DNA of 30,058 bases from the NCBI GenBank assembly GCA_016783505.1, contig JADHWK010000025.1, forward strand, positions 1 through 30,058. The letters are read 5' to 3'. The notes under the pieces were generated by a model. The model was given only the letters and a program-made list of their open reading frames with translations. It was not told the origin of the DNA and made no database searches. A program made the translations under genes and the position numbers. How positions within the stretch are numbered: position 1 is the first letter of the stretch; each line of letters begins with the position of its first letter. Positions 1,174 to 27,793 of the stretch are shown here, piece by piece. The stretch is from Candidatus Zhuqueibacterota bacterium (GTDB lineage: Bacteria; BS750m-G25).

Positions 1174-1298
1174 TTTTTTTATACTTTGTTGTATTATATC
1201 ATGAAATATAAAATATGATCATTGAAAAAAGATGATGGGCAGTCAATAGGTAATCGTAGATGTATTTTTAGTAAATAGACTAAAAGGAATGTCGGCTT
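1174..1298. other. AT-rich spacer between the two hydro-lyase subunits
   Basis: This 125 bp spacer is much more AT-rich than the flanking genes. It contains no clear hairpin-plus-T-tract terminator. An AAAAGGA stretch about a dozen bases before 1299 can serve as a ribosome binding site for the small subunit. A second promoter for the small-subunit operon could lie here, but no convincing -35/-10 pair is seen. Confidence 0.4.
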
Positions 1299-1808
1299 AT
1301 GAAACCTACCAAAATCGGCGGTCGCGTGTGGGTTATCCCCGAACATGACATTGACACTGATATGATCTTTCACAATCGTCATCTGGCGATCACCGACCTC
1401 AAGCAGATGGGACAGTTCACCTTTGGGAACCTGAAGGGCTGGGAGGATTTTCCCAAGCGCGCCCGAAAGGGCGACATCGTAGTGGTGGGGGATAACTTCG
1501 GCTCCGGATCGTCCCGCCAGCAGGCGGTGGACTGTTTCCGGTCGTTGGGTATCTCCTTTATCATCTGTCAATCCGTTGGGGCGATCTATAAACGGAACGC
1601 CATCAATTCGGGGTTTCCTCTGCTGATCTGTCCCGGTATCTTAGATTCAGGGATCGAAAGCGGGCATGAATTAGAAGTGAACATGGTAAATGGCGAAATC
1701 AAAAATCTAACCAAAGACCGGATGATAAAGGCCCAGCCTTTCTCCCGGGTGCAGATGGATATTTATCAGGCTGGGAATTTGTTTGAGTACGGGAAAAAGC
1801 TGCAATGA
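1299..1808 (+). CDS. Aconitase-superfamily hydro-lyase, small subunit (LeuD type)
   Basis: This is the swivel domain that pairs with the large subunit to close the active site. At 169 residues it has the short length typical of the LeuD2/archaeal class of small subunits. The family motif appears as NFGSGSSRQQA (about residues 66-76), where most LeuD proteins have NFGCGSSREHA. The substrate-specificity loop near residues 22-30 reads DMIFHNRHLA instead of the common IIPGRYL-type sequence. Both differences suggest a substrate other than plain isopropylmalate, but this is inference. The stop codon overlaps the start of the outer-membrane protein gene (ATGA), so the two are probably translationally coupled. 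Confidence 0.85.
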   Translation: MKPTKIGGRVWVIPEHDIDTDMIFHNRHLAITDLKQMGQFTFGNLKGWEDFPKRARKGDIVVVGDNFGSGSSRQQAVDCFRSLGISFIICQSVGAIYKRNAINSGFPLLICPGILDSGIESGHELEVNMVNGEIKNLTKDRMIKAQPFSRVQMDIYQAGNLFEYGKKLQ

Positions 1809-12901: not shown

Positions 12902-13678
12902 ATGGAAAGAATAGAGATAATTGATACGAATGCAGACAATATTCTTGAATACGGAGTCTGCGGGTACAAAAATATTAAGAGAGCAGGATACACAGAAAAG
13001 ATTGAGTGGTTAAAAGATCGTTTCCAAGAAGGTATGAAAATAAAAACATTGTTATCAGATAAGGACGGAAATCAAGGTATGATCGAATACATTCCAGGTG
13101 AATATTGCTGGAGACCGGTTGAAGCAAGTGGATATATGTTTATTCACTGTATATTTCTCGGTTTTAAACGTGCTTACAAAGGGAAAGGTTATGGTTCGCT
13201 TTTAGTGGATGAATGTTTAAAAGATGCTAAAAAAGAAAATTTGTATGGGGTTGCTGTGGTAACTCGTAAGGGGTCATTTATGGTGGGTAAGGAATTATTC
13301 GTAAAAAACGGTTTTGAGATTGTTGATACGGCGCCACCTGATTTTGAGTTACTAGTGAAAAAGTTCAATAAAGACACACCTACACCGAAATTCAAAGGAG
13401 ATTGGCAGAAAAGACTGAATCAATATGGCAAAGGCCTAACGATAATTAGAGCAGACCAATGTCCTTACACAGTTAAAAATGTTAAAGAAATAAGTGATAC
13501 TGCAGAGAAGGAATACGGAATAAAACCAAAAATAGTTGAATTAAAAAATTGCGAGGAAGCCCAAAATAGCCCATGCGCGTTTGGAACCTTCTGTATAATA
13601 TATAATGGAAAAGTGATTGCGGATCATCCCATAAGTAATAAAAGGTTCATCAATATTATGAATAAGGTTTTAAAATGA
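12902..13678 (+). CDS. YoaP-like GNAT acetyltransferase with C-terminal thioredoxin-fold domain
   Basis: The 258-residue protein has an N-terminal GNAT fold (about 1-155) with the acetyl-CoA loop GFKRAYKGKGYGSLLVDECL (88-106) and a C-terminal YoaP-type domain (about 160-258) that resembles a thioredoxin fold, with CPYT at 187-190 where a redox CxxC would sit and two more Cys pairs near 217-231. The natural substrate is not known for this family. A strong AAGGAG at 12885-12890 precedes the ATG. Codon use is clearly AT-rich compared with the genes at 11-12.7 kb, which suggests acquisition by transfer. The stop overlaps the ATG of the amidohydrolase by four bases, so the two were once a translationally coupled operon. 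Confidence 0.82.
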   Translation: MERIEIIDTNADNILEYGVCGYKNIKRAGYTEKIEWLKDRFQEGMKIKTLLSDKDGNQGMIEYIPGEYCWRPVEASGYMFIHCIFLGFKRAYKGKGYGSLLVDECLKDAKKENLYGVAVVTRKGSFMVGKELFVKNGFEIVDTAPPDFELLVKKFNKDTPTPKFKGDWQKRLNQYGKGLTIIRADQCPYTVKNVKEISDTAEKEYGIKPKIVELKNCEEAQNSPCAFGTFCIIYNGKVIADHPISNKRFINIMNKVLK

Positions 13679-14453
13679 TACTGCTTAAGAATTGTTTTTA
13701 CGTTGCTACCTTTAATGATAGAGAAGATGAGCTAAAAAACCATGACATTTTGATCAGGGAAAATGTTATAGAAAAGATAGCTCCTGCCATACAGTTATTC
13801 CCCCAGGAGTTAATGAACACCGAGGTGATAGACTGCTCCCGGTTTCTGGTAATACCCGGAATGATCAACACCCATCACCATCTTTTTCAAACGCTTACAA
13901 GGAATCTTCCCGGGGCGCAGAACGCAAAACTCTTCGACTGGCTTGTTTATCTTTATCCCATATGGGGGCGCATGGATGAGGAGGCCATTTATTATTCCAC
14001 CCTTCTGGGGAGCGCTGAACTGCTGAAAACCGGTGCCACTACAACCACAGACCAGATGTACCTGTATCCTGAGGACTTCAAAGGTGACATGATGGGAATT
14101 CAGTTTGAAGCGGCTGCGAGGGCCGGAATACGATTTTCTCCCTCAAGGGGATCTATGACAAGGGGCGAAAGTGATAGGGGGCTGCCCCCAGATCATGTGG
14201 TTCAAAACACCGAAGAGGTGATCAGAGACATGGTGAGGGTGCAGACCTTGCCCTGTATGATATGTTTAAACTCCAGTACGCGGGTGCGCTTGAAGATCCC
14301 CTTGCCGCCATCGTTTTTTCAGGTTATAACCATGAAACGGCGTATACGATCGTGAATGGAGATGTTGTTGTCAGGGAAGGGGAAATTGTGGGCTATGATG
14401 AAGAGGAGATTGTTGAGAGGGTGAATGCGATGGCGGGAAGGATTGTGGGATAG
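13675..14453 (+). pseudogene. Amidohydrolase (8-oxoguanine/hydroxytriazine deaminase-like) broken by an internal deletion
   Basis: The first ~186 residues read as the N-terminal half of a metal-dependent amidohydrolase: LVIPGMINTHHHLFQTLTRN with the metal H-x-H (H67, H69), then GATTTTDQMYLYPED. Near 14230 the reading frame changes. The C-terminal end of the same family continues in another frame from 14232 to the stop at 14453: GADLALYDMFKLQYAGALEDPLAAIVF and TAYTIVNGDVVVREG. Family members are about 450 residues; the two parts add up to about 260, so around 190 middle residues, with the remaining metal ligands, are missing. The product from the ATG runs out of frame to 14355 and should be inactive. 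A start-to-stop overlap ties it to the YoaP-like gene. Confidence 0.82.
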
Positions 14454-14465
14454 ACGATAATCGAA

Positions 14466-14600
14466 GGGAAATTTTTCAACAAAAGACTTGATTCTTTCCA
14501 ATTATTTTTGTAACATAATCCTCAGCGTGAGAGAACATATTTTTTAAAAAAGCCTTCAAAGGCTTTTTCGTGCTTTAAGAAAGTTCATCTTTTTCGGAAG
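14466..14600 (+). repeat. Right copies of the cassette-flanking sequences, with a terminator between
   Basis: 14466-14485 and 14580-14600 match 12734-12753 and 12772-12792 respectively, in the same order, but the distance between the two blocks is larger here because 14486-14579, including the hairpin at 14546-14568, lies between them. This could mark duplication of a gene border during insertion of the cassette. Confidence 0.5.
14546..14568 (+). terminator. Rho-independent terminator after the amidohydrolase remnant
   Basis: An A-rich left arm with GCCTT, a one- to four-base loop and AAGGCTTTTT form a compact hairpin with a T run at its 3' end, 93 bases after the stop at 14453. The A tract on the other side makes it potentially bidirectional. 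Confidence 0.75.
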
Positions 14601-14612
14601 AAATTAATGTAA

Positions 14613-14705
14613 GGATCACGTGTGGCTATTGGTCAGACACAAGCTGGTCGGTATCTGCGTGTTATTTATGTACCGGACCCAGAGCCTAAAGATGAAGCAG
14701 AATAA
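14613..14705 (+). pseudogene. BrnT-like toxin remnant (C-terminal fragment)
   Basis: After an in-frame stop at 14610-14612, this frame reads GSRVAIGQTQAGRYLRVIYV and then PDPEPKDEAE before TAA at 14703. The GQTxAGRYLxVxY block is the conserved core of BrnT/DUF4258-type ribonuclease toxins, but the N-terminal half (about 50 residues) with its usual catalytic residues is absent. It overlaps the ATG of the antitoxin-like frame at 14692, the usual toxin-antitoxin order in this family. The call rests on a short match. Confidence 0.5.
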
Positions 14706-14844
14706 ATTTCCACCCGGATGGGACGAAAACCGAGTCCGTCGTGTTTTAGCCAATTACGAGCGTCAGACCGAAGAGGAAGCCTTAGCAGGAGATAAAGCAG
14801 CGGGTCAGGGAAGCAGCGGACATCCTGGGCAAGATTCAAATTAA
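14692..14844 (+). CDS. BrnA-like/CopG-type antitoxin-like small protein, 3' end altered
   Basis: The 50-residue frame starts with KQNKFPPGWDENRVRRVLAN and continues YERQTEEEALAGDKAA. This is the start of a common small antitoxin-associated protein found beside BrnT/DUF4258 toxins. Intact members go on with an acidic helix and a VPxxLVPxVRELI-type tail. Here the tail is replaced by an unrelated Gly/Ser/Gln-rich sequence (GQGSSGHPGQDSN), so a frameshift or fusion near 14795 probably destroyed the C-terminus. The ATG at 14692 is inside the toxin remnant. Function is unlikely to be retained. Confidence 0.5.
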   Translation: MKQNKFPPGWDENRVRRVLANYERQTEEEALAGDKAAGQGSSGHPGQDSN

Positions 14845-14905
14845 GAAATTTGAATTAACTTATGAGGGTAAAGAACGGGAAGAAGATGTCCCTACACATA
14901 GCTGA
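14786..14905 (+). pseudogene. Unassigned gene-end fragment before the restriction-methyltransferase gene
   Basis: In a second frame across the end of the antitoxin-like gene, an open stretch encodes REAADILGKIQIKKFEL followed by TYEGKEREEDVPTHS and a TGA at 14903-14905. The amphipathic pattern and codon use look like real coding sequence, but I do not recognise the protein. It may be the 3' end of a gene lost by deletion, joined to the antitoxin remnant near 14790. Confidence 0.3.
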
Positions 14906-14922
14906 CAGGTAAGTGAGGAACA

Positions 14923-17900
14923 ATGGAAGCAAAGAAATATTGGCAAATAGATACAGAGAAATTAGCAGAAGACATTAAAGAAATTGCTCGTAGAGTCAAA
15001 ACAGAAGAAGACCTCAAAATGGGCATGGAACCATTGCTTCAAAAAACGTTTAAGAAGATGGGTGTTGATATTAACATTGTCAGGTATGAGAAAACAAGCA
15101 CAACTTTCCGAGGAAGATCTGACGCGGTCTATGGTTATCTAACTATAGAATATAAAGTTCCAAGCAAATTATCAAGAAAGACAGACGTCAAAGTAGCTAC
15201 AGAACAACTTAAACGCTATTTAGGTGAACAGGCTGTACACTTTGGACAACAGAGAGAAGATTTTTTGGAGAAAGCGGTCGGTGTGGCCACTGATGGCAAA
15301 CACATACTTTTCCTGAGATTTACAAAGGTTCCCACAACTTTACAAACGCCCATACCTATCGGAGAGGCACAGGCTGCTCTTTTCCCCGAGATTGAAGCCA
15401 AGCGTGGGTTTCAAGTCTTGGGTCCATATCCAATAAATAAAACAAGTCTTGCAAATCTATTGATATTCGTCCGAGCTTCCGCTCGGCGTCCTTTAACTGC
15501 AAAAGACTTGGCTATAGTGTTTGCCCCTACATGTCAGATAGCGCAACAAGCAGTGTCTGGACTGTATTCCATGCTAATGAGAGCCCAGAGAAGGCAGACA
15601 CCCTCCCGAATAAAGGTATTCTTTCAGGAATGGGATAAAAATTTTGGTGTTGTATATGGTCAAGAATTGGAAAAAGCAAAGAAATCAGCCGCAGAAACAG
15701 CGGAATTATATCGGATGCCAGCTGGCGTTAGACTTAAACAATTGCTTTTTGCGATTCATACTTTCTATGCCTTTCTTATGAAGATTATTTCCATTGAACT
15801 TGTTTCATTGCAAGGTGAAAGCACAGTAAAGTCTTTTGTTAAAGGACTCACTGCGATGGACGATGACGAATTAAAGGATAGACTATCTTATCTAAAGAGT
15901 GGAGCAGACTTCTATAACCATGGAATTGTAAACTTTTTAGAAGCAGATTTCTTCTCCTGGTATCTTGACGGATGGGATCCACATATCGCAAATGTATTTC
16001 GCGCTATTGTAAATGCACTTTCTGATTTTGAACCCGCGACTCCAATGCTTGAACCTGAATGGACAAGAGACCTACTTCAAAGGCTATATGAATTACTCGT
16101 TCCTCGGAAATTAAGACATGATTTAGGAGAGTATTATACTCCTGAATGGCTTGCAGGCTATGTGGTAGATAAAAGCGGATATAAAGGAGTAATTGGCTCT
16201 CGTTTTCTTGACCCTGCCTGTGGATCAGGCACTTTTCTGGTTCAGGCTATTAATAAAGCAATTAGACATGCTGAAGGTGATAGAAAGACGGTGGCACGCC
16301 ACATACTTGAAAATATTGTAGGTTTTGATTTGAATCCAATTGCGGTGTTGTCAGCCCGGACAAATTATCTAATCGCATTTTCGAGGCTCATTTCCTATAT
16401 ACGTCCAATTTCCATTCCTGTCTACTTATGTGATTCTATACTCACACCGACCCGTTATGTAGAAGAAGGAAAACTTCAACTTGAAAATACAATCATTTTT
16501 ACCACAACAAAAGGTAATTATACTTTCCCCATTTCAATGAAGGAAAAGACTCATATAGATAAGTTCACTTCAATGATGGATGTTGCCTTAAGAGGAAAAG
16601 TTAAGCCAGAAAACTTTAAAAATGAGGTTAAGACAGAGTTTAATTTACCCGAAAAAGAAATCTCTCTTCTTGTTAATATTTACAAACGCATAAAAGAGTT
16701 AGATGATGCAGGCGAAAATGGGTTTTGGGCACGATACATAAAGAATGCCTTTGCTCCTGTATATCTGGGTAAATTTGACTTTGTTATTGGTAATCCACCC
16801 TGGGTTAGATGGGATTATCTCTCAGACGATTACCGAAAAAGAACGCTTAAATTATGGCAGAGATATGGGCTTTTCTCTCTGAGAGGTTATGAGGCAAGAT
16901 TAGGAGGTGGGAAAAAAGATTTTTCTATGCTGTTTACTTATGCATCTGCAGATAATTACCTCAAAGACAATGGCATTCTGGGCTTTTTAATTACTATGGA
17001 AGTTTTTAAATCAAAAGGAGCGGGTGAAGGATTCAGGCAGTTTGAATTAAAGGATAAAAAAGTCCCCTTTAAAGTTTTGAGTATGGAAGATATGGTTGAT
17101 TTGCAGCCTTTTCAATCTGCTAACAAGACATCCGTATTTTTCATAAGAAAAGGGGAGAAAACAACTTATCCTGTCAAAGTTATTGAATGGAAGCGAAAAC
17201 CTGGTATTGGTCGTATCCTACCTGATTGGTCTCTGGATATAGTAGAGGCAAATTGTAAGGTAAAACAGATACAGGAAATACCTGTTAATCCAGATAAATT
17301 ATCTTCATCTTGGCAGACCGCAAAAACTGCAGAGTTAACTGTATATTCTAAATTGAAAGGACAAAATCCATATAAGGCCTATACAGGTGCATTTACCACC
17401 CCTTATGGTGTTTTTTGGTTACAGGTTAAAGAAGTAAGACCAGACAATATTCTTGTCGTTGGGAATTTACATGAAAGAGGAAAATGGGAGGTAAAACCTG
17501 TTCATACAGCAATAGAGCCTAATTTAGTATTTCCGGCAGTAAGCGGTGGTGATATATTAAAATTTGGTGTAAGATCTTATTTTTATTTACTGATATCACA
17601 AGACCCTCATAAAAGACGTGGATATGATGAAGAATATTTAAGCACAAAATTTTCTCTCACCTATGCTTACCTTGTCCAGTTTAGAGATATACTTGTTAAA
17701 CGAGCAGCATACAAAAAATATTTCTGTAAAGAAGTTAAAGAAAAAGGGAAAGTAATTGACTATAAGCCTATTGCTCCATTTTATTCTCAGTTCGACATTA
17801 GTGAATTAACTTTTGCCAGATATAGAGTAACTTGGAAACAAATGGCGTCAAAAATGTCTGCGGTTGTGCTATCAAGTATTAGAACTGATTTCGGGACAAA

Positions 17901-18216
17901 ACCGATGATTTCTACTCATACATCCGCATTTTTCCCAGTAGATAATAGAGAAGAGGCACATTATCTTTGTGCCATATTAAATTCAGATATTGTTAATAAC
18001 TTCATAAAAAGTTTCTCGGCAGCTGGACGAGGATTTGGCACCCCATCTATTATGAATAATTTTGCTATCCCACGCTTTAATAACAATAATGAAACTCATA
18101 AGAGACTTGCTAGACTATCAGAGAAAGCACATGAGCTGGTTAAAAGGGGCAAGAGCACAGAGGACCTTGAAAAGCAAATAAACACGGTGGTTAAAAAACT
18201 ATGGAATATAAAATAA
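14923..18216 (+). CDS. Single-chain restriction-modification enzyme (type IIG/Eco57I-like N6-adenine methyltransferase with nuclease domain)
   Basis: A 1097-residue protein combining cleavage, methylation and DNA recognition. The N-terminal nuclease shows a PD-(D/E)xK-like site: D67 in GRSDAVYGYL, then E76-x-K78 in TIEYKVP. A helical linker (about 200-400) leads to the adenine methyltransferase with SAM-binding motif I DPACGSG (430-436) and catalytic motif IV NPPW (624-627). The last ~350 residues, with FSAAGRGFGTPSIMNNFAIP, are the target-recognition and C-terminal part seen in Eco57I/type IIL enzymes. Every key motif is intact and the frame unbroken. Codon use is AT-rich, unlike the glycogen genes downstream. 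A GAGG lies four bases before the ATG at 14923. It overlaps the DprA-like gene by 16 bases. The recognition sequence cannot be read. Confidence 0.85.
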   Translation: MEAKKYWQIDTEKLAEDIKEIARRVKTEEDLKMGMEPLLQKTFKKMGVDINIVRYEKTSTTFRGRSDAVYGYLTIEYKVPSKLSRKTDVKVATEQLKRYLGEQAVHFGQQREDFLEKAVGVATDGKHILFLRFTKVPTTLQTPIPIGEAQAALFPEIEAKRGFQVLGPYPINKTSLANLLIFVRASARRPLTAKDLAIVFAPTCQIAQQAVSGLYSMLMRAQRRQTPSRIKVFFQEWDKNFGVVYGQELEKAKKSAAETAELYRMPAGVRLKQLLFAIHTFYAFLMKIISIELVSLQGESTVKSFVKGLTAMDDDELKDRLSYLKSGADFYNHGIVNFLEADFFSWYLDGWDPHIANVFRAIVNALSDFEPATPMLEPEWTRDLLQRLYELLVPRKLRHDLGEYYTPEWLAGYVVDKSGYKGVIGSRFLDPACGSGTFLVQAINKAIRHAEGDRKTVARHILENIVGFDLNPIAVLSARTNYLIAFSRLISYIRPISIPVYLCDSILTPTRYVEEGKLQLENTIIFTTTKGNYTFPISMKEKTHIDKFTSMMDVALRGKVKPENFKNEVKTEFNLPEKEISLLVNIYKRIKELDDAGENGFWARYIKNAFAPVYLGKFDFVIGNPPWVRWDYLSDDYRKRTLKLWQRYGLFSLRGYEARLGGGKKDFSMLFTYASADNYLKDNGILGFLITMEVFKSKGAGEGFRQFELKDKKVPFKVLSMEDMVDLQPFQSANKTSVFFIRKGEKTTYPVKVIEWKRKPGIGRILPDWSLDIVEANCKVKQIQEIPVNPDKLSSSWQTAKTAELTVYSKLKGQNPYKAYTGAFTTPYGVFWLQVKEVRPDNILVVGNLHERGKWEVKPVHTAIEPNLVFPAVSGGDILKFGVRSYFYLLISQDPHKRRGYDEEYLSTKFSLTYAYLVQFRDILVKRAAYKKYFCKEVKEKGKVIDYKPIAPFYSQFDISELTFARYRVTWKQMASKMSAVVLSSIRTDFGTKPMISTHTSAFFPVDNREEAHYLCAILNSDIVNNFIKSFSAAGRGFGTPSIMNNFAIPRFNNNNETHKRLARLSEKAHELVKRGKSTEDLEKQINTVVKKLWNIK

Positions 18217-19031
18217 TAACTCCAAGCGATTCTAAATATCCACAGAAACTTATTAAAAGTCTGGGTGATAAATGTCCTGACAAAATTTATTATAGCGGCC
18301 CATTAGAATTTCTTGACCATTTTACTATGGCGGTAATTTGTTCAGATAAAAGTGGTGGGATTGCACTGATGGAGACAAACCAAGTCCTTTTTACAGTGCG
18401 AGAATACGAAATGAATTATATTGGTGGTTGGCATTCAGTAATAGAGACTGAAATTTTCAGACTGAGTTTATTTAGAAAAAACACAACGACCACTCTCTTC
18501 TCTGCAAAAGGATTAGCTGTAGAGACATTTGAATCTTTTCTGAAAGACAGGTTTTATCCACCCTTGCATGAATTTCCTGAAAGAGATGAGTATTTCAGAC
18601 GGGCCAAAAACAGTGAGTTGTTGGTACTTTCTGTTAGTAACCCCAACGAGACAAGACAGTCGCGAAAGAATGTAATTGAAAGAAACTGGACATCCTGTGT
18701 TCTTGCAGACATTGTTTTTGTCCCGTATGGGCCAAAAGGTTCAAAGACTTACACAATGGCAAAAAGAATTCATGAAGCAAATATACCCGCCTTTACAATT
18801 GAAAACGACGGATGTAAAGATCTCCATGAACTTGGTATTCCTGGATTCAATCGTAAAACTGTTAGGGCCTTTCTCGAAGACAATGGTGCAAAACGGGCAA
18901 TTCCACAGAAAGAGACAAGGAAATCTGTCGAGGCATATAAGAGACCAATAAGTCAGCAACTGTCCTTTGTAAAAGAGCCTACCCAGAAAGAACTGAAATT
19001 TAAAAAGAATAGCAAGAATAGCAATCTGTAA
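18201..19031 (+). CDS. DprA/Smf-like SLOG-fold protein coupled to the restriction-methyltransferase
   Basis: The 276-residue protein follows the DprA outline: SKYPQKLIKSLGDKCPDKIYYSG matches the DprA entry (YPxxLxxIxDxPxxLYxxG), and ESFLKDRFYPPLHEF to ERNWTSCVLADIVFVPYGPKGSKTY plus IHEANIPAFTIENDG and LHELGIPGF matches the second half of the Rossmann-like fold (RNRIIAxLSxxxVVVExxxxSGSLxTA...GxxVFAVPG). The glycine-rich GSR nucleotide/DNA loop is replaced by CSDKSGG, so normal DNA-processing function is doubtful. SLOG-fold proteins often bind nucleotides or signalling molecules. The C-terminal 50 residues are Lys/Gln-rich. Its ATG lies 16 bases inside the methyltransferase gene without a Shine-Dalgarno sequence, so translation is probably coupled and the two are one module. 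Confidence 0.72.
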   Translation: MEYKIITPSDSKYPQKLIKSLGDKCPDKIYYSGPLEFLDHFTMAVICSDKSGGIALMETNQVLFTVREYEMNYIGGWHSVIETEIFRLSLFRKNTTTTLFSAKGLAVETFESFLKDRFYPPLHEFPERDEYFRRAKNSELLVLSVSNPNETRQSRKNVIERNWTSCVLADIVFVPYGPKGSKTYTMAKRIHEANIPAFTIENDGCKDLHELGIPGFNRKTVRAFLEDNGAKRAIPQKETRKSVEAYKRPISQQLSFVKEPTQKELKFKKNSKNSNL

Positions 19032-20331: not shown

Positions 20332-22455
20332 ATGAGGTCTCCCCTTCATATTGCCTTTCTCTGGCACATGCACCAACCTTACTACTGGGACCCCTTTACT
20401 GAAAAATATCGGCTGCCGTGGGTGCGCCTGCACGGGGTAAAAGATTATTACGATATGGTGGCCATCCTGAAGGATTTTCCCGACATCCGGGTCACCTTTA
20501 ATCTGGTCCCCTCACTATTAGATCAACTAGAAGGATATGTTCTGGGGATCACCGATCCCTTTTTAGATATTACGTTGAAGTCGGACTACGATGGGGATGA
20601 CCGGCTCTTCCTGCTGAAAAATTATTTCGCATTGAACATTCCCCGTATGGTCAGGCCTTATCAGCGGTATTGGAGGCTTTTTCAACTCAGGGGCGGGGGA
20701 TCGGGGATTAACCGGGGTTTTAAGGATCAGGAATTTCGCGACATAGCGGTATGGTTTAACCTGGCCTGGTGTGGCCATACGCTGCGGATTACCGATAGCG
20801 TGCGCGGTCTTCTGCAGAAGGGTAGAAATTTTACCCATAGGGACAAAGAACTCCTCATTTCTGAACAAAATCGCTTAATCGAAAAAATTATTCCCACCTA
20901 CCAGGAATTTGCCCATCAGGGTCAGATTGAGATTACCACCAGTCCCTACTACCATCCCATATTGCCATTGTTAATAGATACCGGTCTAGCCCGACAGGTC
21001 GATCCCGCCCTTAATCTTCCCCAACACAGCTTTAACCGCCCTGAGGATGCCCGCTGGCAGATTGGTGCCGCCGCCGAGGCCTATCAACGTTGTTTCGGCA
21101 TCCCACCCCGAGGACTTTGGCCTTCCGAGGGGTCCCTGTGCCGCCAGGCTATTCCCATGATGGCGGATGCCGGTTTTCATTGGACGGCTACTGACGCCGA
21201 AATCCTGCGCCGCAGTTTAGGAAAAGGAAGGTTGGCTCCTAAAGAACTCTACCGACCTTATCGGATAACCGTAGACGGAGGGGAATTGGTGGTTTTTTTC
21301 CGGGATTCCACCTTATCCGACCTCATCGGGTTTACATATGCCGGATGGGACTCAGTACGGGCGGCGGATGACTTCGTCCACAGGCTTGCGGCCATCCGGG
21401 AGGGACTTCCCGATGACGGGCGGTCCTATGTTATCTCTATTATTTTAGATGGGGAGAACGCCTGGGAGCACTACCCCAACAACGGCTGGGATTTTTTAAC
21501 CAGCCTCTACGGGAAATTGCAGCAATCCACAAGGTTTAAGACGGTGACGTTTTCTGAATTCCTGAAAGGGGAGGAAAGGCCGGAGGAATTGAGCAGAATC
21601 GTTCCGGGTTCCTGGATTAACGGCAATTTTGATACCTGGATCGGTCAGCCCGAGAAAAACAGGGCCTGGGACCTGTTGGCGGGGGCCCGGACCGGGGTGG
21701 GGAGAAGCCTGATCGAAGGGGATGGCGGGGCCCCTGAGGGGCTACACCAGATTTACATCGCCGAGGGCAGTGATTGGTTCTGGTGGTTGGGGGAGGGCCA
21801 ATACAGTCTCTATGAGAATGAGTTTGATTCCCTCTTTCGGAATCATTTGAAGAAGGCCTATTCCCTGATCGGTCGTCCCATTCCTGCCACACTGGAGGAG
21901 CCTCTCACCAGGGGGAAGGCAATGGGAGTATTCGTTCCCCCCACCCATCTGATAAGTCCGGGGGTTAACGGGGCCTCCGATCTTTATTATGATTGGACGG
22001 CGGCCGGCTATTGCCAGGCGCGGGAGGGGGCCATTCACCGAACTTACCGGTTGCTGAAAAAGTTATACTTTGGCTTCGATTTGGAAAATCTTTACTTGAA
22101 GCTGATTCTGGACCGGCCCAGATTGGAAGCCCTGCGGGACAATCCCGCCCTGGAGTTTAAATTTTACCGGCCGGTGAGGGGGAGGCTTCGAGTCACCCTA
22201 TTCAGGGACGGATACAAACTTATATTTGTCCTTGATGATAGGGAGAAGGAGATTCCGACGACCAACTTTTCAATGACAAAATCCCTGAAGATTCGGCTGC
22301 CCTTTGTGGTTTTGGGGGCCAGGGCCGGGGATCCGGTGGAATTTTACCTCTCCTTGACCATCAACGATAACGAGGTCGAAAGACTGCCCGGCGATGAGCT
22401 GATTGACCTGGTCGTCCCATCAGAGGAATTTGAAGGAGAGAATTGGTATGTTTAA
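20332..22455 (+). CDS. GH57 glycoside hydrolase (alpha-amylase/amylopullulanase-like)
   Basis: The 707-residue cytoplasmic enzyme (no signal peptide) begins with IAFLWHMHQPYYWDPFTEKY, the GH57 region 1 (HxHQP). Region 3 has the catalytic glutamate E266 in GLWPSEGS, and region 4 has the probable acid/base D373 in IILDGENAWEHYPNNG. The barrel is followed by helical and beta-sandwich sections (about 420-700) that carry no second known catalytic motif. The family acts on alpha-1,4 and sometimes alpha-1,6 glucans. Its LDGENAWEHY block is like amylopullulanase-type members and unlike the 4-alpha-glucanotransferase next door. It overlaps that gene by eight bases, so the pair is cotranslated. Exact specificity (amylase, pullulanase or debranching) is not readable. 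Confidence 0.85.
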   Translation: MRSPLHIAFLWHMHQPYYWDPFTEKYRLPWVRLHGVKDYYDMVAILKDFPDIRVTFNLVPSLLDQLEGYVLGITDPFLDITLKSDYDGDDRLFLLKNYFALNIPRMVRPYQRYWRLFQLRGGGSGINRGFKDQEFRDIAVWFNLAWCGHTLRITDSVRGLLQKGRNFTHRDKELLISEQNRLIEKIIPTYQEFAHQGQIEITTSPYYHPILPLLIDTGLARQVDPALNLPQHSFNRPEDARWQIGAAAEAYQRCFGIPPRGLWPSEGSLCRQAIPMMADAGFHWTATDAEILRRSLGKGRLAPKELYRPYRITVDGGELVVFFRDSTLSDLIGFTYAGWDSVRAADDFVHRLAAIREGLPDDGRSYVISIILDGENAWEHYPNNGWDFLTSLYGKLQQSTRFKTVTFSEFLKGEERPEELSRIVPGSWINGNFDTWIGQPEKNRAWDLLAGARTGVGRSLIEGDGGAPEGLHQIYIAEGSDWFWWLGEGQYSLYENEFDSLFRNHLKKAYSLIGRPIPATLEEPLTRGKAMGVFVPPTHLISPGVNGASDLYYDWTAAGYCQAREGAIHRTYRLLKKLYFGFDLENLYLKLILDRPRLEALRDNPALEFKFYRPVRGRLRVTLFRDGYKLIFVLDDREKEIPTTNFSMTKSLKIRLPFVVLGARAGDPVEFYLSLTINDNEVERLPGDELIDLVVPSEEFEGENWYV

Positions 22456-24589
22456 AAAAATTAACTTTATTTTTGGTGTTCACTGCCACCAGCCGGTGGG
22501 TAATTTCGACCATGTGTTCGAGGAGGCCTATCAGAAAAGCTACCTGCCATTCCTGGGGGTGCTGGAACAATTTCCCCAAATTCGGGTAGTCCTCCACTAC
22601 AGCGGTTCCCTTTTGGAATGGATTGAGGATCGGCACCCAGATTTTTTAAACCGGGTTAAGGAAATCATTCATCGGGGTCAGGCGGAACTTTTAACCGGGG
22701 GGTTCTACGAACCCATTTTGCCAATTATCCCCGATGAGGACAAAATCGGTCAGATCACATCGTATACGGAGCTATTAACCAAAAGATTCGCCTGTCATCC
22801 CCAGGGCCTGTGGCTTACCGAGAGGGTGTGGGAGCCCCATCTGGCGAAACCCCTGGCCCAGGCTGGGGTTCGATACATTGCGGTGGACGATTATCACTTC
22901 AAGAGCACGGGGATGGGGGAAGGGGAACTGGGGAGATATTTCATGACCGATGAATTGGGCAAAACCCTGGCCATCTTTCCCATCAGCGAACGGTTGAGGT
23001 ATTTGATCCCCTTTGAAAAGCCCGGGGATACCATCGAATATCTTAGATCGTGGGCGGACCCGTCCGGGGAAAGGCTGCTGGTGCTGGCCGACGACGGAGA
23101 GAAGTTCGGTCTATGGCCGGGGACCTATGACTGGGTCTATGGACAAAAATGGCTGGAGTCCTTTTTCAGGGATCTGGGGGAAAACGCCGATTGGATTTCA
23201 GTCACCACCTTCTCTGATTTTATGGAAAAGCATCCCCCGGCCGGTCGGGTTTATCTGCCCACCGCCTCCTATTTCGAGATGAGCCAGTGGACCCTGCCGG
23301 CCCAGAGCGGGGAGAAATTTGAGGCCCTGGTTGAGGACCTTAAGGAGAAAGGCCGGATTGAGGAGTATAAACCCTATTTAAAAGGGGGTTTCTGGCGAAA
23401 CTTTCTGGCCAAATATCCTGAGAGCAACAATATGCACAAACGTATGCTCCGGGTCAGCGGGATGATTCATCATTACGAGAAGGAAAAAGGCGTCCTTTTA
23501 AGAGAAGAGCGACGGGAACTCTATCGGGGCCAGACCAACTGCGGCTACTGGCATGGGGTGTTCGGTGGGCTTTACCTGCCCCACCTCCGGGATGCCGTCT
23601 ACCGCCACCTTCTAAAAGCCGAGCGGCTGCTGGAAGCACGGATTCATTCCGGTAAGGATTGGATCGAGGTGGAAAGGACGGATTTTGACAGGGATGGGTC
23701 GGATGAGATAATCGTTAACACTAAAAGTTTAAGCCTGTTTTTCTCACCGGGGGATGGGGGTCATCTCTTTGAGCTGGACTACAAACCCACTGATTTTAAC
23801 CTGATCAACACCCTGGCCCGGAGGCCGGAGAGCTACCATCGGGGGATTCGGGAGTACCATCCAGGGCAGCAAGAAGGGGAAAGGGAAACCAGCATTCATG
23901 ACCTCACCCGCCCGGTGGACGAGGATTTGAAGAGATTTCTGGTTTACGACCGGGCCCGCCGGGTTTCCCTGATTGATCATTTTCTGGGTCCCACCACCGA
24001 CCTGGACGGGTTCCGACTGGAAAGGTATAGGGAAGCCGGGGATTTTATAAAGGGGAGATACCAGGCTGCCGTAAGGGAGAGCAGGGGGAGGGTTCGGGTG
24101 CAGATGTCCAGGGAAGGGCGGGTAGTCGCAGATGGCCGCGAGGGAAAGCTTTCGGTTACAAAAACCATACAAATTCTGACTGGACGTGATGTTATTACTA
24201 TTGATTATGCCCTGCGCAATCTGGCGGCAGAGGGTGTTAAGCTATGGTTTGGTTCTGAGTTTAATTTTTCCATGCTGGGATCCAAAAATAAAGGGGTCAG
24301 ATACGTGATTCCAGGCGAAGATCTAAAGGCCAACGGATTGGGGGACAAGGGGGAATTGGTCGGGGTTCGAACCTTTCAGATTGTTGACGACCGCCAAGGA
24401 ATAGAGATTTCATTGGACTTTTTAGCGCCGGTAACCCTGTGGTATTTTCCCATCGAGACCATATCCCAATCAGAAAGTGGGTACGACAAATTGTATCAGT
24501 CTTCAGTTGTATTCCCGAATTGGAAGATTGATCTTAAACCGAAGGGAGCCTGGAAGGTTCGGTTTTTTTTAAGAATAGATTCAATATAA
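22448..24589 (+). CDS. GH57 4-alpha-glucanotransferase/alpha-amylase with DUF1925 and DUF1926
   Basis: 713 residues from the ATG at 22448, chosen because AAGGAG sits nine bases upstream; an upstream in-frame start at 22403 would overlap the previous gene further. GH57 barrel: FGVHCHQPVGNFDHVFEEAY, catalytic E125 in GLWLTERVWEP and D215/D216 in LADDGEKFGLWPGTYDWVY, matching the position of the Thermococcus litoralis 4-alpha-glucanotransferase residues E123 and D214. The middle helical domain contains KNFLAKYPESNNMHKRMLRVS-like sequence (DUF1925), and the C-terminal beta-sandwich (DUF1926) ends with the LWYFPIETISQSESGYDKLYQSS block. It transfers maltodextrin chains, helping to recycle or reshape glycogen. 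Confidence 0.9.
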   Translation: MFKKINFIFGVHCHQPVGNFDHVFEEAYQKSYLPFLGVLEQFPQIRVVLHYSGSLLEWIEDRHPDFLNRVKEIIHRGQAELLTGGFYEPILPIIPDEDKIGQITSYTELLTKRFACHPQGLWLTERVWEPHLAKPLAQAGVRYIAVDDYHFKSTGMGEGELGRYFMTDELGKTLAIFPISERLRYLIPFEKPGDTIEYLRSWADPSGERLLVLADDGEKFGLWPGTYDWVYGQKWLESFFRDLGENADWISVTTFSDFMEKHPPAGRVYLPTASYFEMSQWTLPAQSGEKFEALVEDLKEKGRIEEYKPYLKGGFWRNFLAKYPESNNMHKRMLRVSGMIHHYEKEKGVLLREERRELYRGQTNCGYWHGVFGGLYLPHLRDAVYRHLLKAERLLEARIHSGKDWIEVERTDFDRDGSDEIIVNTKSLSLFFSPGDGGHLFELDYKPTDFNLINTLARRPESYHRGIREYHPGQQEGERETSIHDLTRPVDEDLKRFLVYDRARRVSLIDHFLGPTTDLDGFRLERYREAGDFIKGRYQAAVRESRGRVRVQMSREGRVVADGREGKLSVTKTIQILTGRDVITIDYALRNLAAEGVKLWFGSEFNFSMLGSKNKGVRYVIPGEDLKANGLGDKGELVGVRTFQIVDDRQGIEISLDFLAPVTLWYFPIETISQSESGYDKLYQSSVVFPNWKIDLKPKGAWKVRFFLRIDSI

Positions 24590-24594
24590 AATTA

Positions 24595-24656
24595 CCCGCC
24601 AAGGGCGGTCAGACCCATACGGGGGCTACGCTCCGACCCGTAGGGGGTAACTCCGG
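24595..24656. repeat. Repeat CCCGCCAAGGGCGGTCAGACC ... GTAGGGGGTAAC-CCGG, copy 1
   Basis: Begins with the CCGCC-AAG-GGCGG palindrome at 24596 and ends in GACCCGTAGGGGGTAACTCCGG-like sequence. The same beginning and end recur at 27949-27993, where the middle is shorter by about 17 bases. It follows the glucanotransferase stop codon directly, where a terminator would be expected. Confidence 0.65.
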
Positions 24657-24678
24657 CATTGTAGTTTATCATAATGAT

Positions 24679-24702
24679 GTCGGGGATGAAAACATCCCCG
24701 AC
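24679..24702. repeat. Perfect hairpin GTCGGGGATG-AAAA-CATCCCCGAC
   Basis: A 10 bp perfect stem around an AAAA loop, 42 bases upstream of the galT-like start. No T tract follows, so it looks like a REP-type palindrome or an mRNA-stabilising stem rather than a terminator. Confidence 0.7.
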
Positions 24703-24743
24703 GAGCAGTAGAACCACAGATTTAATGAAGGAGAGTCACCACC

Positions 24744-25772
24744 ATGCCCGAACTGAGACACGACCCGATTCAGAAACGGTGGGTTATCATTTCCACGGAA
24801 AGATCGAGGCGACCCTCGGATTTTAAGGTGACCAGCCCCCCCCCTGACGACAAATTCTGTCCCTTCTGCGAGGGGAACGAGGATAAAACCCCGCTCGAAA
24901 TTTATTCCATCCGCCGGGACGGCACCCTGCCCAACACCCCCGGCTGGGAGGTGCGGGTGGTGCCCAATAAATTTCCCGCCCTGATGATCGAGGGGGAGCA
25001 TGACCGGGCCGGGGTGGGGCTCTATGACCGGATGAACGGCATTGGAGCCCATGAAGTGATCATTGAAATCCCCGATCACGGTAGTTCTATGGCTGACAGG
25101 CCGCTGGAAAATCTGGTGAAGGTATTCACTGTCTATAAAAACAGGCTTATAGACCTGATAAAGGATAGGCGGTTCAAATATATTTTAATCTTTAAAAACC
25201 ACGGTCGGGTGGCCGGGGCCTCCCTCTCCCATCCTCATACCCAGATAATCGCCACCCCGGTGACCCCCCGTACGGTGGCGGTGGAGCTGGAATCGGCCCG
25301 CGCTCACTATCAGCTTAAGGAGCGATGCATCTTCTGCGACATCATCAAGCAGGAGATCGAGGCCGGGGACCGGATCATCTGCATTGACGAAAATTATGTG
25401 GCCATTGCCCCTTACGCCTCCAGGCATCCCTTTGAGGCCTTCGTGGTCCCCCGGGCACACCGGCACGACTTCGGCGAATCCACTGAGGAGGAAATCTATC
25501 AACTGGCCGTTATGATGAAGGATCTGCTCGTTCGCTTAAAGCTCAGTTTAGGGGACCCGCCCTACAACTTTCTTTTCCACACGGCACCTAACGTGATCCC
25601 CCAACCCCGGCGGCCGGGCTATTGGGAGACGCTGTCCTTGGACTGGCACTGGCACATCGAAGTGCTGCCGCGGCTGACCCGAACGGCGGGGTTCGAATGG
25701 GGCACGGGCTTTTACATAAACCCTACCCGGCCGGAGGATGCGGCGAAGTTTTTGAGGGAGGTAGAAGTATAA
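24744..25772 (+). CDS. galT: GalT-family nucleotidyltransferase (galactose-1-phosphate uridylyltransferase)
   Basis: 342 residues of the HIT-superfamily GalT type. Zinc ligands C39 and C42 lie in CPFCEGNE. The active site is HPHTQ (163-167) with nucleophile H165, preceded by KNHGRVAGASLS. The second half repeats the HIT fold (CIFCDIIKQE; ...PYNFLFHTAP; DWHWHIEVLPRL). It moves UMP between UDP-glucose and galactose-1-phosphate. Because it sits inside an alpha-glucan cluster, an ADP-glucose-phosphorylase-like or other NDP-sugar specificity is also possible; sequence alone cannot decide. A GAAGGAGA ribosome binding site precedes the ATG. Confidence 0.85.
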   Translation: MPELRHDPIQKRWVIISTERSRRPSDFKVTSPPPDDKFCPFCEGNEDKTPLEIYSIRRDGTLPNTPGWEVRVVPNKFPALMIEGEHDRAGVGLYDRMNGIGAHEVIIEIPDHGSSMADRPLENLVKVFTVYKNRLIDLIKDRRFKYILIFKNHGRVAGASLSHPHTQIIATPVTPRTVAVELESARAHYQLKERCIFCDIIKQEIEAGDRIICIDENYVAIAPYASRHPFEAFVVPRAHRHDFGESTEEEIYQLAVMMKDLLVRLKLSLGDPPYNFLFHTAPNVIPQPRRPGYWETLSLDWHWHIEVLPRLTRTAGFEWGTGFYINPTRPEDAAKFLREVEV

Positions 25773-26086
25773 CTCACAAGAACAGATCACTAAACAACTA
25801 TTTGATTTTTCAATAGGGGGGTGTTTTGGAATGCATCGTCCGTCTTGTCACCGTATATCGTTTATCCCGAAGCTTCGGGAAGCCCGTATCGAAGCCTGGT
25901 ATTGAGCATTCGTAACCCGGCTTCCTTTAAGAAATGCCAGGAGACAAAAACCGATGAGATTGGCCGAAGGCCGGGCAACGAAAGCCGTAACCGATACAGG
26001 CAGCGTCACCGATAAACCGGTCACGATTATCGTCTAATTTATTTTTACAATAGTTTAGAGACCAATAACTTTTTCCTGGAGTCAAC
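25773..26086. other. Spacer without a recognised gene (hairpin plus a weak 27-codon frame)
   Basis: About 310 bp between galT and the branching enzyme gene. It contains the palindrome TCCCGAAGCTTCGGGA (25865-25880). A short frame at 25954-26037, with AGGAG ten bases before its ATG, would encode MRLAEGRATKAVTDTGSV and nine further residues; I do not recognise it and it may be chance. Longer frames here have no coding character. A promoter for the branching enzyme could lie in the AT-rich last 50 bases. Confidence 0.4.
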
Positions 26087-27793
26087 ATGAAAAAGCCTTA
26101 CGGATATTTTTCCTTTGTTTTACACAGCCATCTGCCGTATGTCCTGGCTCACGGCGGCTGGCCCCACGGGACCGACTGGCTGTTCGAGGCGGCGGCTGAG
26201 ACCTATCTTCCACTGTTGAACCTCCTGTTTGACTTAAAGGAGACAGGGATAGCCCCGAAGTTGACCCTGGGGATCACCCCGGTGCTGGCTGAGCAGTTGG
26301 CCGATGACCGCTTCAAGGGGGGATTGGCTGATTATTTGGAAATGAAGATAAAATCCGCCCAGGAAAATAAAAAGGAGTTTGAAAGTGTCGGGCAGCCCCA
26401 CCGGGCCGCCCTAGCCGGGATGTGGAAGGACCATTTTGAGGGGCTTCGGAGCTCTTTTAACGACCGTTATCACCGGGATCTGGTCGGGGCGTTCCGAGAG
26501 CTTCAGGATGATGGGACCATTGGGATTATCACCTCGGCGGCCACCCACGGCTACCTTCCCCTGCTGGAGACGGACCAGAGCGTCCAGGCCCAGATAAAAT
26601 GTGGGGTCGCTTCCTATGAGAAGCATTTCGGCCGCCGGCCCCAGGGCATCTGGCTGCCCGAATGTGCCTACCGACCGAGTTACCAATGGGCCTCGCCGTT
26701 GGGGGGAGAGAAGCCCTATCTACGGAAAGGCATCGAAGAGGTTCTGGCTGATGAGGGAATTCTTTATTTCATCGTTGACTCCCATCTTTTAAAAGGGGGA
26801 CGGGCCATCGGGGCCTATCTGGATCGCTTCGAGGCCCTGAAGGTCTTGTGGCAGCGGTTTGCCGAGAGCTACCAGCCCCGGGAAGAGGATAAGGAAAAAT
26901 TTTCCTGTTCGGTATACCTGGCTGGGTCGGAGGGGAGCCCCAAGACCACCGCCTTTTTTGCCCGGGATGAAAAGACAGGGCTTCAGGTCTGGTCAGGGGA
27001 ATGGGGTTACCCCGGGGACGGCTGGTATCTGGATTTTCATAAAAAGCATTTCCCAGGGGGACACCGCTACTGGAGGGTTACATCGGCCAAGGCGGACCTG
27101 GCCGATAAGCACGAATACGATCCTGCCAAGGTGGATGAAATTCTGGGCAATCAGGTTCACCATTTCGTCGAGCTCGTCAAGGAAACGCTGAAATCGCATT
27201 TTGAAAGGACGGGTGAGGCCGGGGTTATCTGTGCCCCTTACGATACCGAGCTTTTCGGCCATTGGTGGTTCGAGGGACCCCGATGGATCGCCGGGGTGCT
27301 AAAACGAATTGCCCAGGACCCGGAAATAGAGCTCACAACCCTGGGGGAGCATCTGGGTCGGGCCCAGCCCCGGGGGGTGGTCTCCCTGTCTGAGGGATCC
27401 TGGGGGGAAGGGGGTTTCCATTACATCTGGTTCAATGACTGGAACCGCTGGACCTGGAGGCATATCTACGATGCCGAGAAGAGGATGATCGGGCTGGTCA
27501 AATCCAGCCCAAGAACGGCTGATGGGAAGCTATACCGGATTTTAAAGCAACTGGCCCGGGAGCTTTTGCTTCTGGAAAGCTCAGACTGGCAGTTTCTGAT
27601 CAGCACCTGGTCGGCCCGGGACTACGCCGAAGGGCGGGTGGTCCTGCATACGGAAAACTTCAACCGGTTGGCCGAAATGGCTGAAAAGTTCCTCGGAGGG
27701 AAAGAAATTGGGGATGGGGATTGGGCGTTTCTGGATACGCTGGAAAGAAACGACTGCCTGTTTCCAAACGTTGATCCTTCCTGGTGGCTATGA
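26087..27793 (+). CDS. GH57 1,4-alpha-glucan branching enzyme
   Basis: The 568-residue enzyme makes alpha-1,6 branches in glycogen. It begins GYFSFVLHSHLPYVLAHGGWPHGTDWLFEA, the signature start of GH57 branching enzymes (HSHLPY, WPxGxxWLxEA). The catalytic pair is E192 in GIWLPECAYRPSYQW and D386 in APYDTELFGHWWFEGP, equivalent to E183 and D354 of the Thermococcus kodakarensis enzyme. The C-terminal DUF1957 helices carry SEGSWGEGGFHYIWFNDWNRWTW and ELLLLESSDWQFLISTWSA, needed for branching specificity. With the two upstream GH57 enzymes and the ROK kinase it completes a glycogen building and recycling set; glycogen synthase is not in the window. Confidence 0.92.
   Translation: MKKPYGYFSFVLHSHLPYVLAHGGWPHGTDWLFEAAAETYLPLLNLLFDLKETGIAPKLTLGITPVLAEQLADDRFKGGLADYLEMKIKSAQENKKEFESVGQPHRAALAGMWKDHFEGLRSSFNDRYHRDLVGAFRELQDDGTIGIITSAATHGYLPLLETDQSVQAQIKCGVASYEKHFGRRPQGIWLPECAYRPSYQWASPLGGEKPYLRKGIEEVLADEGILYFIVDSHLLKGGRAIGAYLDRFEALKVLWQRFAESYQPREEDKEKFSCSVYLAGSEGSPKTTAFFARDEKTGLQVWSGEWGYPGDGWYLDFHKKHFPGGHRYWRVTSAKADLADKHEYDPAKVDEILGNQVHHFVELVKETLKSHFERTGEAGVICAPYDTELFGHWWFEGPRWIAGVLKRIAQDPEIELTTLGEHLGRAQPRGVVSLSEGSWGEGGFHYIWFNDWNRWTWRHIYDAEKRMIGLVKSSPRTADGKLYRILKQLARELLLLESSDWQFLISTWSARDYAEGRVVLHTENFNRLAEMAEKFLGGKEIGDGDWAFLDTLERNDCLFPNVDPSWWL

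What the first reader, a model, noticed from the sequence alone, without database searches (positions are those of the whole stretch)
14923..19031. Two-gene module: Eco57I-like restriction-methyltransferase coupled to a degenerate DprA/SLOG protein
A complete single-chain nuclease-methyltransferase (D67, E76-x-K78; DPACGSG; NPPW) overlaps by 16 bases a 276-residue protein with a DprA-like fold whose GSR loop is replaced by CSDKSGG. Type IIG enzymes normally need no partner. Tight overlap, shared AT-rich codon use and an island position suggest a single defence unit in which the SLOG protein could sense DNA ends or a nucleotide signal, or modulate the nuclease. Basis: motifs are seen; SLOG ligand binding is established for the superfamily; the joint function is inference.
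Basis: partly seen in the sequence, partly recalled or inferred. Interest (0 to 1): 0.75.

Follow-up and report, generated by a model that had tools for sequence, protein, structure and literature searches.

The report
Restriction enzyme with obligate DprA-like partner
Two overlapping genes, a one-piece DNA-cutting and DNA-marking enzyme and a DprA-shaped partner, travel together as one mobile defence unit across distant bacteria; the partner probably keeps the cutter from harming its own host, a problem long left open for such enzymes.

Summary
ORF 14923-18216 is an intact single-chain Type IIG enzyme of the TspDTI subfamily (D67-E76-x-K78, DPACGSG, NPPW). ORF 18201-19031 starts 16 bases before its end and has a DprA fold (Z 21.8) without DprA's GSR loop. 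The pairing is specific and conserved: all 7 other loci found for this partner clade (38-82% identity, several phyla) have the same IIG, or its remains, ending at the partner's start; of 15 other genomes with an IIG of this family, none has the partner beside it. Both genes are under purifying selection (dN/dS about 0.14) and move as a low-GC cassette. Separately, 4 of 7 genomes with an unrelated IIG family carry a related DprA-like gene in the same cluster. The nearest characterised relative, RqlI, binds and restrains a genotoxic partner (PMC4670107). I infer that the partner restrains or licenses the IIG on host DNA rather than sensing DNA ends or a signal: the ligand loop is not conserved, no signal-making gene is present, and two loci keep an intact partner beside a broken IIG. 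A disordered tail carries a conserved Q-x-x-L-x-F motif resembling a sliding-clamp-binding peptide (untested). Verdict: a new variant of a known kind.

The parts
14923..18216 (+). Type IIG restriction enzyme-methyltransferase, 1097 aa, TspDTI subfamily
   Evidence: PADLOC REase_MTase_IIG PDLC03630 E 2.9e-260 over residues 14-1096; Pfam Eco57I 53.7 bits and N6_Mtase 37.9 bits, both over their cut-offs
15121..15156 (+). nuclease motif D67...E76-x-K78 (PD-(D/E)XK type)
   Evidence: D67 invariant and E76 nearly invariant in 15 relatives
16210..16230 (+). SAM-binding motif DPACGSG (430-436)
   Evidence: same motif as TspDTI (PMC3384240)
16792..16803 (+). methyltransferase catalytic motif NPPW (624-627)
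   Evidence: invariant in 15 relatives
17263..17802 (+). variable stretch, probable target-recognition domain (residues 781-960)
   Evidence: identity falls to 25-35% in some pairs while most of the rest is about 63-97%; mosaic pattern
18201..19031 (+). DprA-fold (SLOG) partner protein, 276 aa
   Evidence: PF02481 E 9.5e-7; AlphaFold2 pLDDT 82, pTM 0.81; best solved match DprA 3uqz Z 21.8, ShosA 8zva Z 18.4
18201..18216 (+). 16-base gene overlap
   Evidence: same overlap in L039-L044
18339..18359 (+). CSDKSGG loop replacing the DprA GSR loop; not conserved within the clade
18897..19028 (+). disordered C-terminal tail of the partner (residues 233-276)
   Evidence: pLDDT mostly below 60 after residue 230; linker identity 32% against 74% in the body
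18984..19001 (+). conserved tail motif QKELKF (Q-x-x-L-x-[FY]), candidate sliding-clamp-binding peptide
   Evidence: present at the same place in 7 of 8 members, QLKLL in the eighth

Best explanation
This is a self-contained, horizontally mobile two-gene restriction-modification cassette. The first gene makes a TspDTI-type single-chain enzyme that cuts unmodified DNA and methylates its site. The overlapping second gene makes a DprA-fold partner that has lost the DprA ligand loop and most likely works as a restraining or licensing subunit. It would bind the conserved nuclease/methyltransferase body (not the recognition domain, which recombines freely while the partner stays the same) and keep cleavage in check on host DNA that is temporarily unmethylated, for example just after replication or just after the cassette enters a new host. 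Shown here: intact motifs, DprA fold, clade-wide pairing with a fixed overlap, purifying selection on both genes, joint transfer, recognition-domain mosaicism. Inferred: physical contact, restraint rather than activation, and the host-protection role.
For: Pairing: the 7 partner loci found in a scan of 84,980 species genomes plus the window all have the IIG C-terminus at the partner's start; intact full-length pairs are the window, L039, L041 and L043. The IIG tree puts these in one clade at 100/100; in 15 other genomes of 290 with this IIG family, none has the partner beside it. dN/dS is about 0.14 for both genes. Cassette identity (62-71%) exceeds that of the flanking V-ATPase genes (24-55%) between L039 and L043, so it was transferred. 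Recurrence: the related PsyrA/RqlI-type DprA protein lies within a few genes of an unrelated IIG (PDLC03628) in 4 of the 7 genomes with that IIG (genome-level chance 8e-6), beside Type I M and S genes (L019), and, with a RecQ helicase, inside a Type I system and a BREX operon. Precedent: RqlI, the nearest characterised relative, binds its operon partner RqlH and blocks its genotoxicity (PMC4670107). Asymmetry: L042 and L045 keep an intact partner beside a broken IIG; no IIG of this clade was seen without the partner. Need: for MmeI-family IIG enzymes, which mark one strand, how unmethylated daughter DNA is told from foreign DNA is stated as unclear (PMC4081073, PMC3874165); Tth111II, a TspDTI-subfamily member, is listed without a companion methylase (PMC3874165), and this cassette has no second methylase.
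Against: No interaction or activity was measured. Most TspDTI-family enzymes work without such a partner, so restraint is not a general need. The asymmetry rests on two draft-genome loci. An activating or stabilising subunit would give the same gene-order evidence. The IIG is only inferred to mark one strand; its recognition site is unknown. The loci were found with the partner as query, so 'IIG of this clade without partner' was tested only in 290 genomes, plasmids and viral contigs.
Confidence: 0.5

Rival explanations
1. Activating subunit or DNA-structure sensor: the DprA-like protein binds DNA ends, ssDNA or replication/recombination intermediates of invading DNA and switches the IIG on.
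For: DprA binds ssDNA and the model is closest to DprA (Z 20-22). R161-N162 and a G-S-K-T stretch at the DprA RNR and SGSLIT positions are kept. The pairing evidence fits activation equally well.
Against: The GSR-equivalent loop is not conserved, K50 included, in the 8 cassette members. The nearest characterised relative is an inhibitor (PMC4670107). TspDTI-type enzymes cut without any partner (PMC3384240).
Confidence: 0.22
2. Nucleotide-signal receptor: the SLOG pocket binds a small nucleotide made on infection and modulates or backs up the IIG (Thoeris/ThsA-like logic).
For: SLOG folds bind ADP-ribose derivatives in ThsA and TRPM2; these appear as weaker structural neighbours (Z about 8-9).
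Against: No signal-producing gene in the cassette at any locus; no effector domain fused; ligand loop varies. DprA and ShosA are far closer than ThsA (Z 18-22 against about 8.5).
Confidence: 0.08
3. Independent second protein, for instance a recombination mediator that repairs or protects host DNA, kept next to the IIG for co-transfer but without acting on it.
For: DprA is a recombination mediator; the partner could protect the host by helping repair accidental breaks. The tail motif could recruit it to the clamp.
Against: The fixed 16-base overlap and exclusive pairing in all loci found argue for matched synthesis and a direct link; six host genomes already have an ordinary DprA.
Confidence: 0.15
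4. Chance or passive neighbours: the pair is an ordinary IIG with an unrelated downstream gene.
For: Most IIGs of the family stand alone.
Against: 8 of 8 loci across phyla, joint transfer, parallel selection.
Confidence: 0.02

Closest known systems
TspDTI subfamily of Type IIG/IIC/IIS enzymes (TspDTI, Tth111II/TthHB27I, TsoI)
   Same: About 1,100 aa single chain, nuclease-helical-methyltransferase-specificity order, DPACGSG and NPPW motifs, D-EXK or D-EXE nuclease (PMC3384240); PADLOC model PDLC03630 spans the whole chain.
   Different: Known members are not described with a protein partner; here a DprA-fold gene overlaps the 3' end in every clade member found. Site and activity unknown.
RqlHI / PsyrTA (RecQ-PRTase helicase with DprA-like RqlI/PsyrA)
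   Same: DprA-like partner in an operon with a DNA-acting enzyme; the cassette partner matches PADLOC PsyrA over residues 3-63 (E 8.4e-8), and its wider relatives match PsyrA much better.
   Different: The partnered enzyme is a restriction enzyme, not a helicase-PRTase; the partner lacks the RqlI helix-turn-helix and instead has a short disordered tail with a Q-x-x-L-x-F motif.
ShosTA (ShosA antitoxin)
   Same: ShosA is the closest non-DprA solved fold (8zva, Z 18.4).
   Different: Weak sequence match (E 0.0037, residues 3-50); different partner.
DprA/Smf recombination mediator
   Same: Same fold (3uqz Z 21.8, 202 residues, rmsd 2.3).
   Different: TIGR00732 score 28 against a cut-off of 191; no GSR loop; relatives carry a separate true DprA.
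PDLC03628 Type IIG clusters with SNF2-type helicase and a PsyrA-like gene (L018, L021, L073, L076)
   Same: DprA/PsyrA-like gene in the same cluster as a Type IIG enzyme.
   Different: Different IIG family, several extra genes, no overlap between the two.

Membership tests
TspDTI-subfamily Type IIG enzyme | single chain of about 1,100 aa with nuclease, SAM-binding DPACGSG and catalytic NPPW | tested here: met
   features as listed in PMC3384240
TspDTI-subfamily Type IIG enzyme | D-EXK/D-EXE nuclease site intact | tested here: met
   D67, E76, K78, kept in the clade
TspDTI-subfamily Type IIG enzyme | cuts 11/9 from an asymmetric site, SAM-modulated | not testable with these tools
   needs biochemistry
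DprA (TIGR00732 equivalog) | score above the curated cut-off | tested here: not met
   28 bits against 191.15
DprA (TIGR00732 equivalog) | GSR loop of the DNA-binding pocket | tested here: not met
   replaced by CSDKSGG and variable in the clade
DprA/SLOG fold superfamily | DprA-type Rossmann fold | tested here: met
   Z 21.8 to 3uqz over 202 residues, model pLDDT 82
PsyrA/RqlI antitoxin family | sequence match over the DprA-like domain | tested here: inconclusive
   E 8.4e-8 but only residues 3-63; wider relatives match over most of their length
PsyrA/RqlI antitoxin family | encoded beside a RecQ-type helicase/PRTase | tested here: not met
   partner gene is a Type IIG enzyme in all loci
PsyrA/RqlI antitoxin family | neutralises the toxicity of its operon partner | not testable with these tools
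   needs expression tests
Thoeris-like SLOG receptor | signal-producing enzyme encoded alongside | tested here: not met
   no such gene in the cassette
beta-clamp-binding proteins | QL(S/D)LF-like peptide in a disordered tail | tested here: inconclusive
   Q-x-x-L-x-[FY] conserved in 7 of 8, QLKLL in the eighth; consensus only loosely met

The most novel reading that the evidence does not exclude
The DprA-fold partner is a replication-coupled licensing factor. Its tail docks on the sliding clamp, so that the IIG bound to it methylates, and does not cut, the daughter duplex that emerges unmethylated from the fork. This would be a dedicated answer to how a lone restriction enzyme that marks only one strand spares newly replicated host DNA.
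Probability: 0.2. Interest if true: 0.85.

Novelty: new variant of a known kind. Interest (0 to 1): 0.6.

Why it matters
For MmeI-type single-chain Type IIG enzymes that modify one strand, reviews say it is unclear how unmethylated daughter DNA is told from foreign DNA (PMC4081073, PMC3874165). A clade of IIG enzymes with a fixed, overlapping partner gene gives a handle on that question: remove the partner and see whether the enzyme becomes self-harming. It also extends the role of DprA/RqlI-like proteins, seen here beside Type IIG, Type I, BREX and RecQ genes, from single cases to a recurring control module of DNA-attacking systems.

Tried and rejected
Phage and viral collections: no relative of the partner or the IIG clade. 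Plasmids: no partner homologue, only distant IIGs of about 28% identity; the four inspected lack a DprA-like neighbour. Ordinary DprA: rejected by TIGR00732 score and by separate true DprA genes in six relatives; the window's own genome could not settle it (60% complete). Recognition subunit: rejected as a role for the partner because the variable domain is inside the IIG. Inherited V-ATPase operon neighbour: rejected because flanking genes are much less similar than the cassette. Paper searches found no description of a DprA-like partner of a Type IIG enzyme; the library lacks most subscription papers, and REBASE could not be consulted.
Full report
Observation. The two ORFs stand at 14923-18216 (1097 aa) and 18201-19031 (276 aa), same strand, overlapping by 16 bases. 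The first matches PADLOC's Type IIG model PDLC03630 along its full length (E 2.9e-260). It carries D67, E76-x-K78, DPACGSG and NPPW, the features given for the TspDTI subfamily of single-chain enzymes (PMC3384240); D67 and the SAM and catalytic motif cores are invariant in 15 relatives. The second matches the DprA domain weakly (PF02481 E 9.5e-7; TIGR00732 28 bits against a cut-off of 191). Its AlphaFold2 model (pLDDT 82, pTM 0.81) is closest to DprA (3uqz, Z 21.8, rmsd 2.3 over 202 residues) and ShosA (8zva, Z 18.4).

Conservation of the pair. A scan of 84,980 species genomes with the partner found seven loci, in Neomarinimicrobiota, Desulfobacteraceae, Desantisbacteria, Nitrospirae and unassigned bacteria, at 38-82% identity. 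In all seven the IIG C-terminus reaches the partner's start. L039, L041 and L043 are intact full-length pairs with IIG identity 79, 80 and 70%. L040 and L044 show the IIG end up to the contig edge. L042 has only the last 66 residues of the IIG, and L045 a degenerate IIG, both beside an intact partner gene. In 290 genomes, 16 (the window's included) hold an IIG matching the same PADLOC model, and only the window's has the partner next to it. In a tree, the partner-bearing IIGs form one clade (100/100), whose nearest relatives without a partner are at 40-43% identity.

Mobility and selection. dN/dS is about 0.14 for both genes where dS is measurable. The cassette has lower GC than its surroundings in each locus measured (window 37.6% against 50.4%). 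L039 and L043 carry it at the same junction, right after the V-ATPase subunit E gene, although the flanking V-ATPase proteins are only 24-55% identical and the cassette proteins 62-71%. No transposase or integrase accompanies it in the intact loci. Within the IIG, residues 781-960 fall to 25-35% identity between some pairs, with a mosaic pattern, while most of the rest stays at about 63-97%. This fits swapping of the recognition domain and argues that the partner acts on the constant part.

The partner protein. DprA's GSR loop is replaced by CSDKSGG here and by CSDDTGG, SADSISG, SADSIYG or TADQEPG in relatives, so a ligand role of that loop is not conserved; R161-N162 and, in most, G-S-K-T are kept. 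After residue 232 the chain is predicted disordered and the linker is poorly conserved (identity 32% against 74% in the body). Yet Q253, K258, Q262 and L265 are invariant and position 267 is F or Y in the seven closest members; the eighth has QLKLL. Q-x-x-L-x-F resembles bacterial sliding-clamp-binding peptides (consensus QL(S/D)LF, variable; PMC9690074). This is a lead, not a demonstration.

The wider family. More distant relatives (CSxKCPG loop) match PADLOC PsyrA well. In the same 290 genomes, eight carry such a gene (not counting the window and a PsyrTA copy). Seven carry an unrelated IIG family, PDLC03628. Four genomes have both, and in all four the two genes lie in the same cluster (L018, L021, L073, L076); genome-level chance is 8e-6. 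Others lie beside Type I M and S genes (L019). With a RecQ helicase, relatives lie inside a Type I system in E. coli and a BREX operon in Acinetobacter. RqlI, the experimentally studied member, binds its operon partner RqlH and suppresses its genotoxicity (PMC4670107).

Is it an ordinary DprA? Six genomes with this partner have a separate full DprA (262-277 bits). The window's genome shows no other DprA, but it is 60% complete, so this cannot be decided there.

Mechanism. The most likely reading is a restraining or licensing subunit of a mobile IIG system. The need is clear for MmeI-family IIG enzymes, which mark only one strand: replication then yields fully unmethylated daughter sites, and how these are spared is stated as unclear (PMC4081073, PMC3874165). 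PMC3874165 lists Tth111II, of the TspDTI subfamily, without a companion methylase, and none lies in this cassette. The bolder reading is that the tail couples the enzyme to the clamp so that nascent DNA is methylated at once. In favour of the general idea, a methylase with a non-palindromic site, DnmA, is enriched at the replisome (PMC9973331). Restraint, contact and clamp binding are inference; an activating or repair role remains possible.

Limits. All loci other than the window were found with the partner as query; close IIGs lacking it could exist outside the sets searched. Several loci are draft metagenome assemblies. The IIG structure job did not finish.

Noticed in passing
L039 5142-9816; L043 5112-9813: In two distant bacteria the cassette sits at the same junction, directly after the V-ATPase subunit E gene, suggesting a preferred insertion point inside an operon; no mobility gene is present.
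   Followed up: partly
window 17263-17802 (IIG residues 781-960): The probable recognition domain is mosaic between cassette members, so site specificity likely changes by recombination.
   Followed up: partly
window 14560-14922: Remnant of what looks like a toxin-antitoxin pair (an antitoxin-like peptide MKQNKFPPGWDENRVRRVLANYERQ...) just upstream of the cassette; judged by eye only.
   Followed up: no
window 7-1808 and 13675-14440: An aconitase-like gene split over two ORFs and an amidohydrolase that appears to have lost its middle part; real decay or assembly errors.
   Followed up: no
L076 7681-15999: A PsyrA-like gene follows a DarTG toxin-antitoxin pair, a Type IIG enzyme (PDLC03628) and a helicase in one apparent operon.
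   Followed up: partly
L018 6347-18000: Large cluster: helicase with PLD domain, Type IIG enzyme, AbiEi/AbiEii, PsyrA-like gene, GmrSD-type and Mrr-type nucleases.
   Followed up: partly
L074 6858-8537: A PsyrA-like gene directly downstream of a candidate defence nuclease (PADLOC PDC-S02).
   Followed up: no
window 20332-27793: Cluster of three GH57 glycoside hydrolases and a GalT-like gene, probably glycogen metabolism.
   Followed up: no
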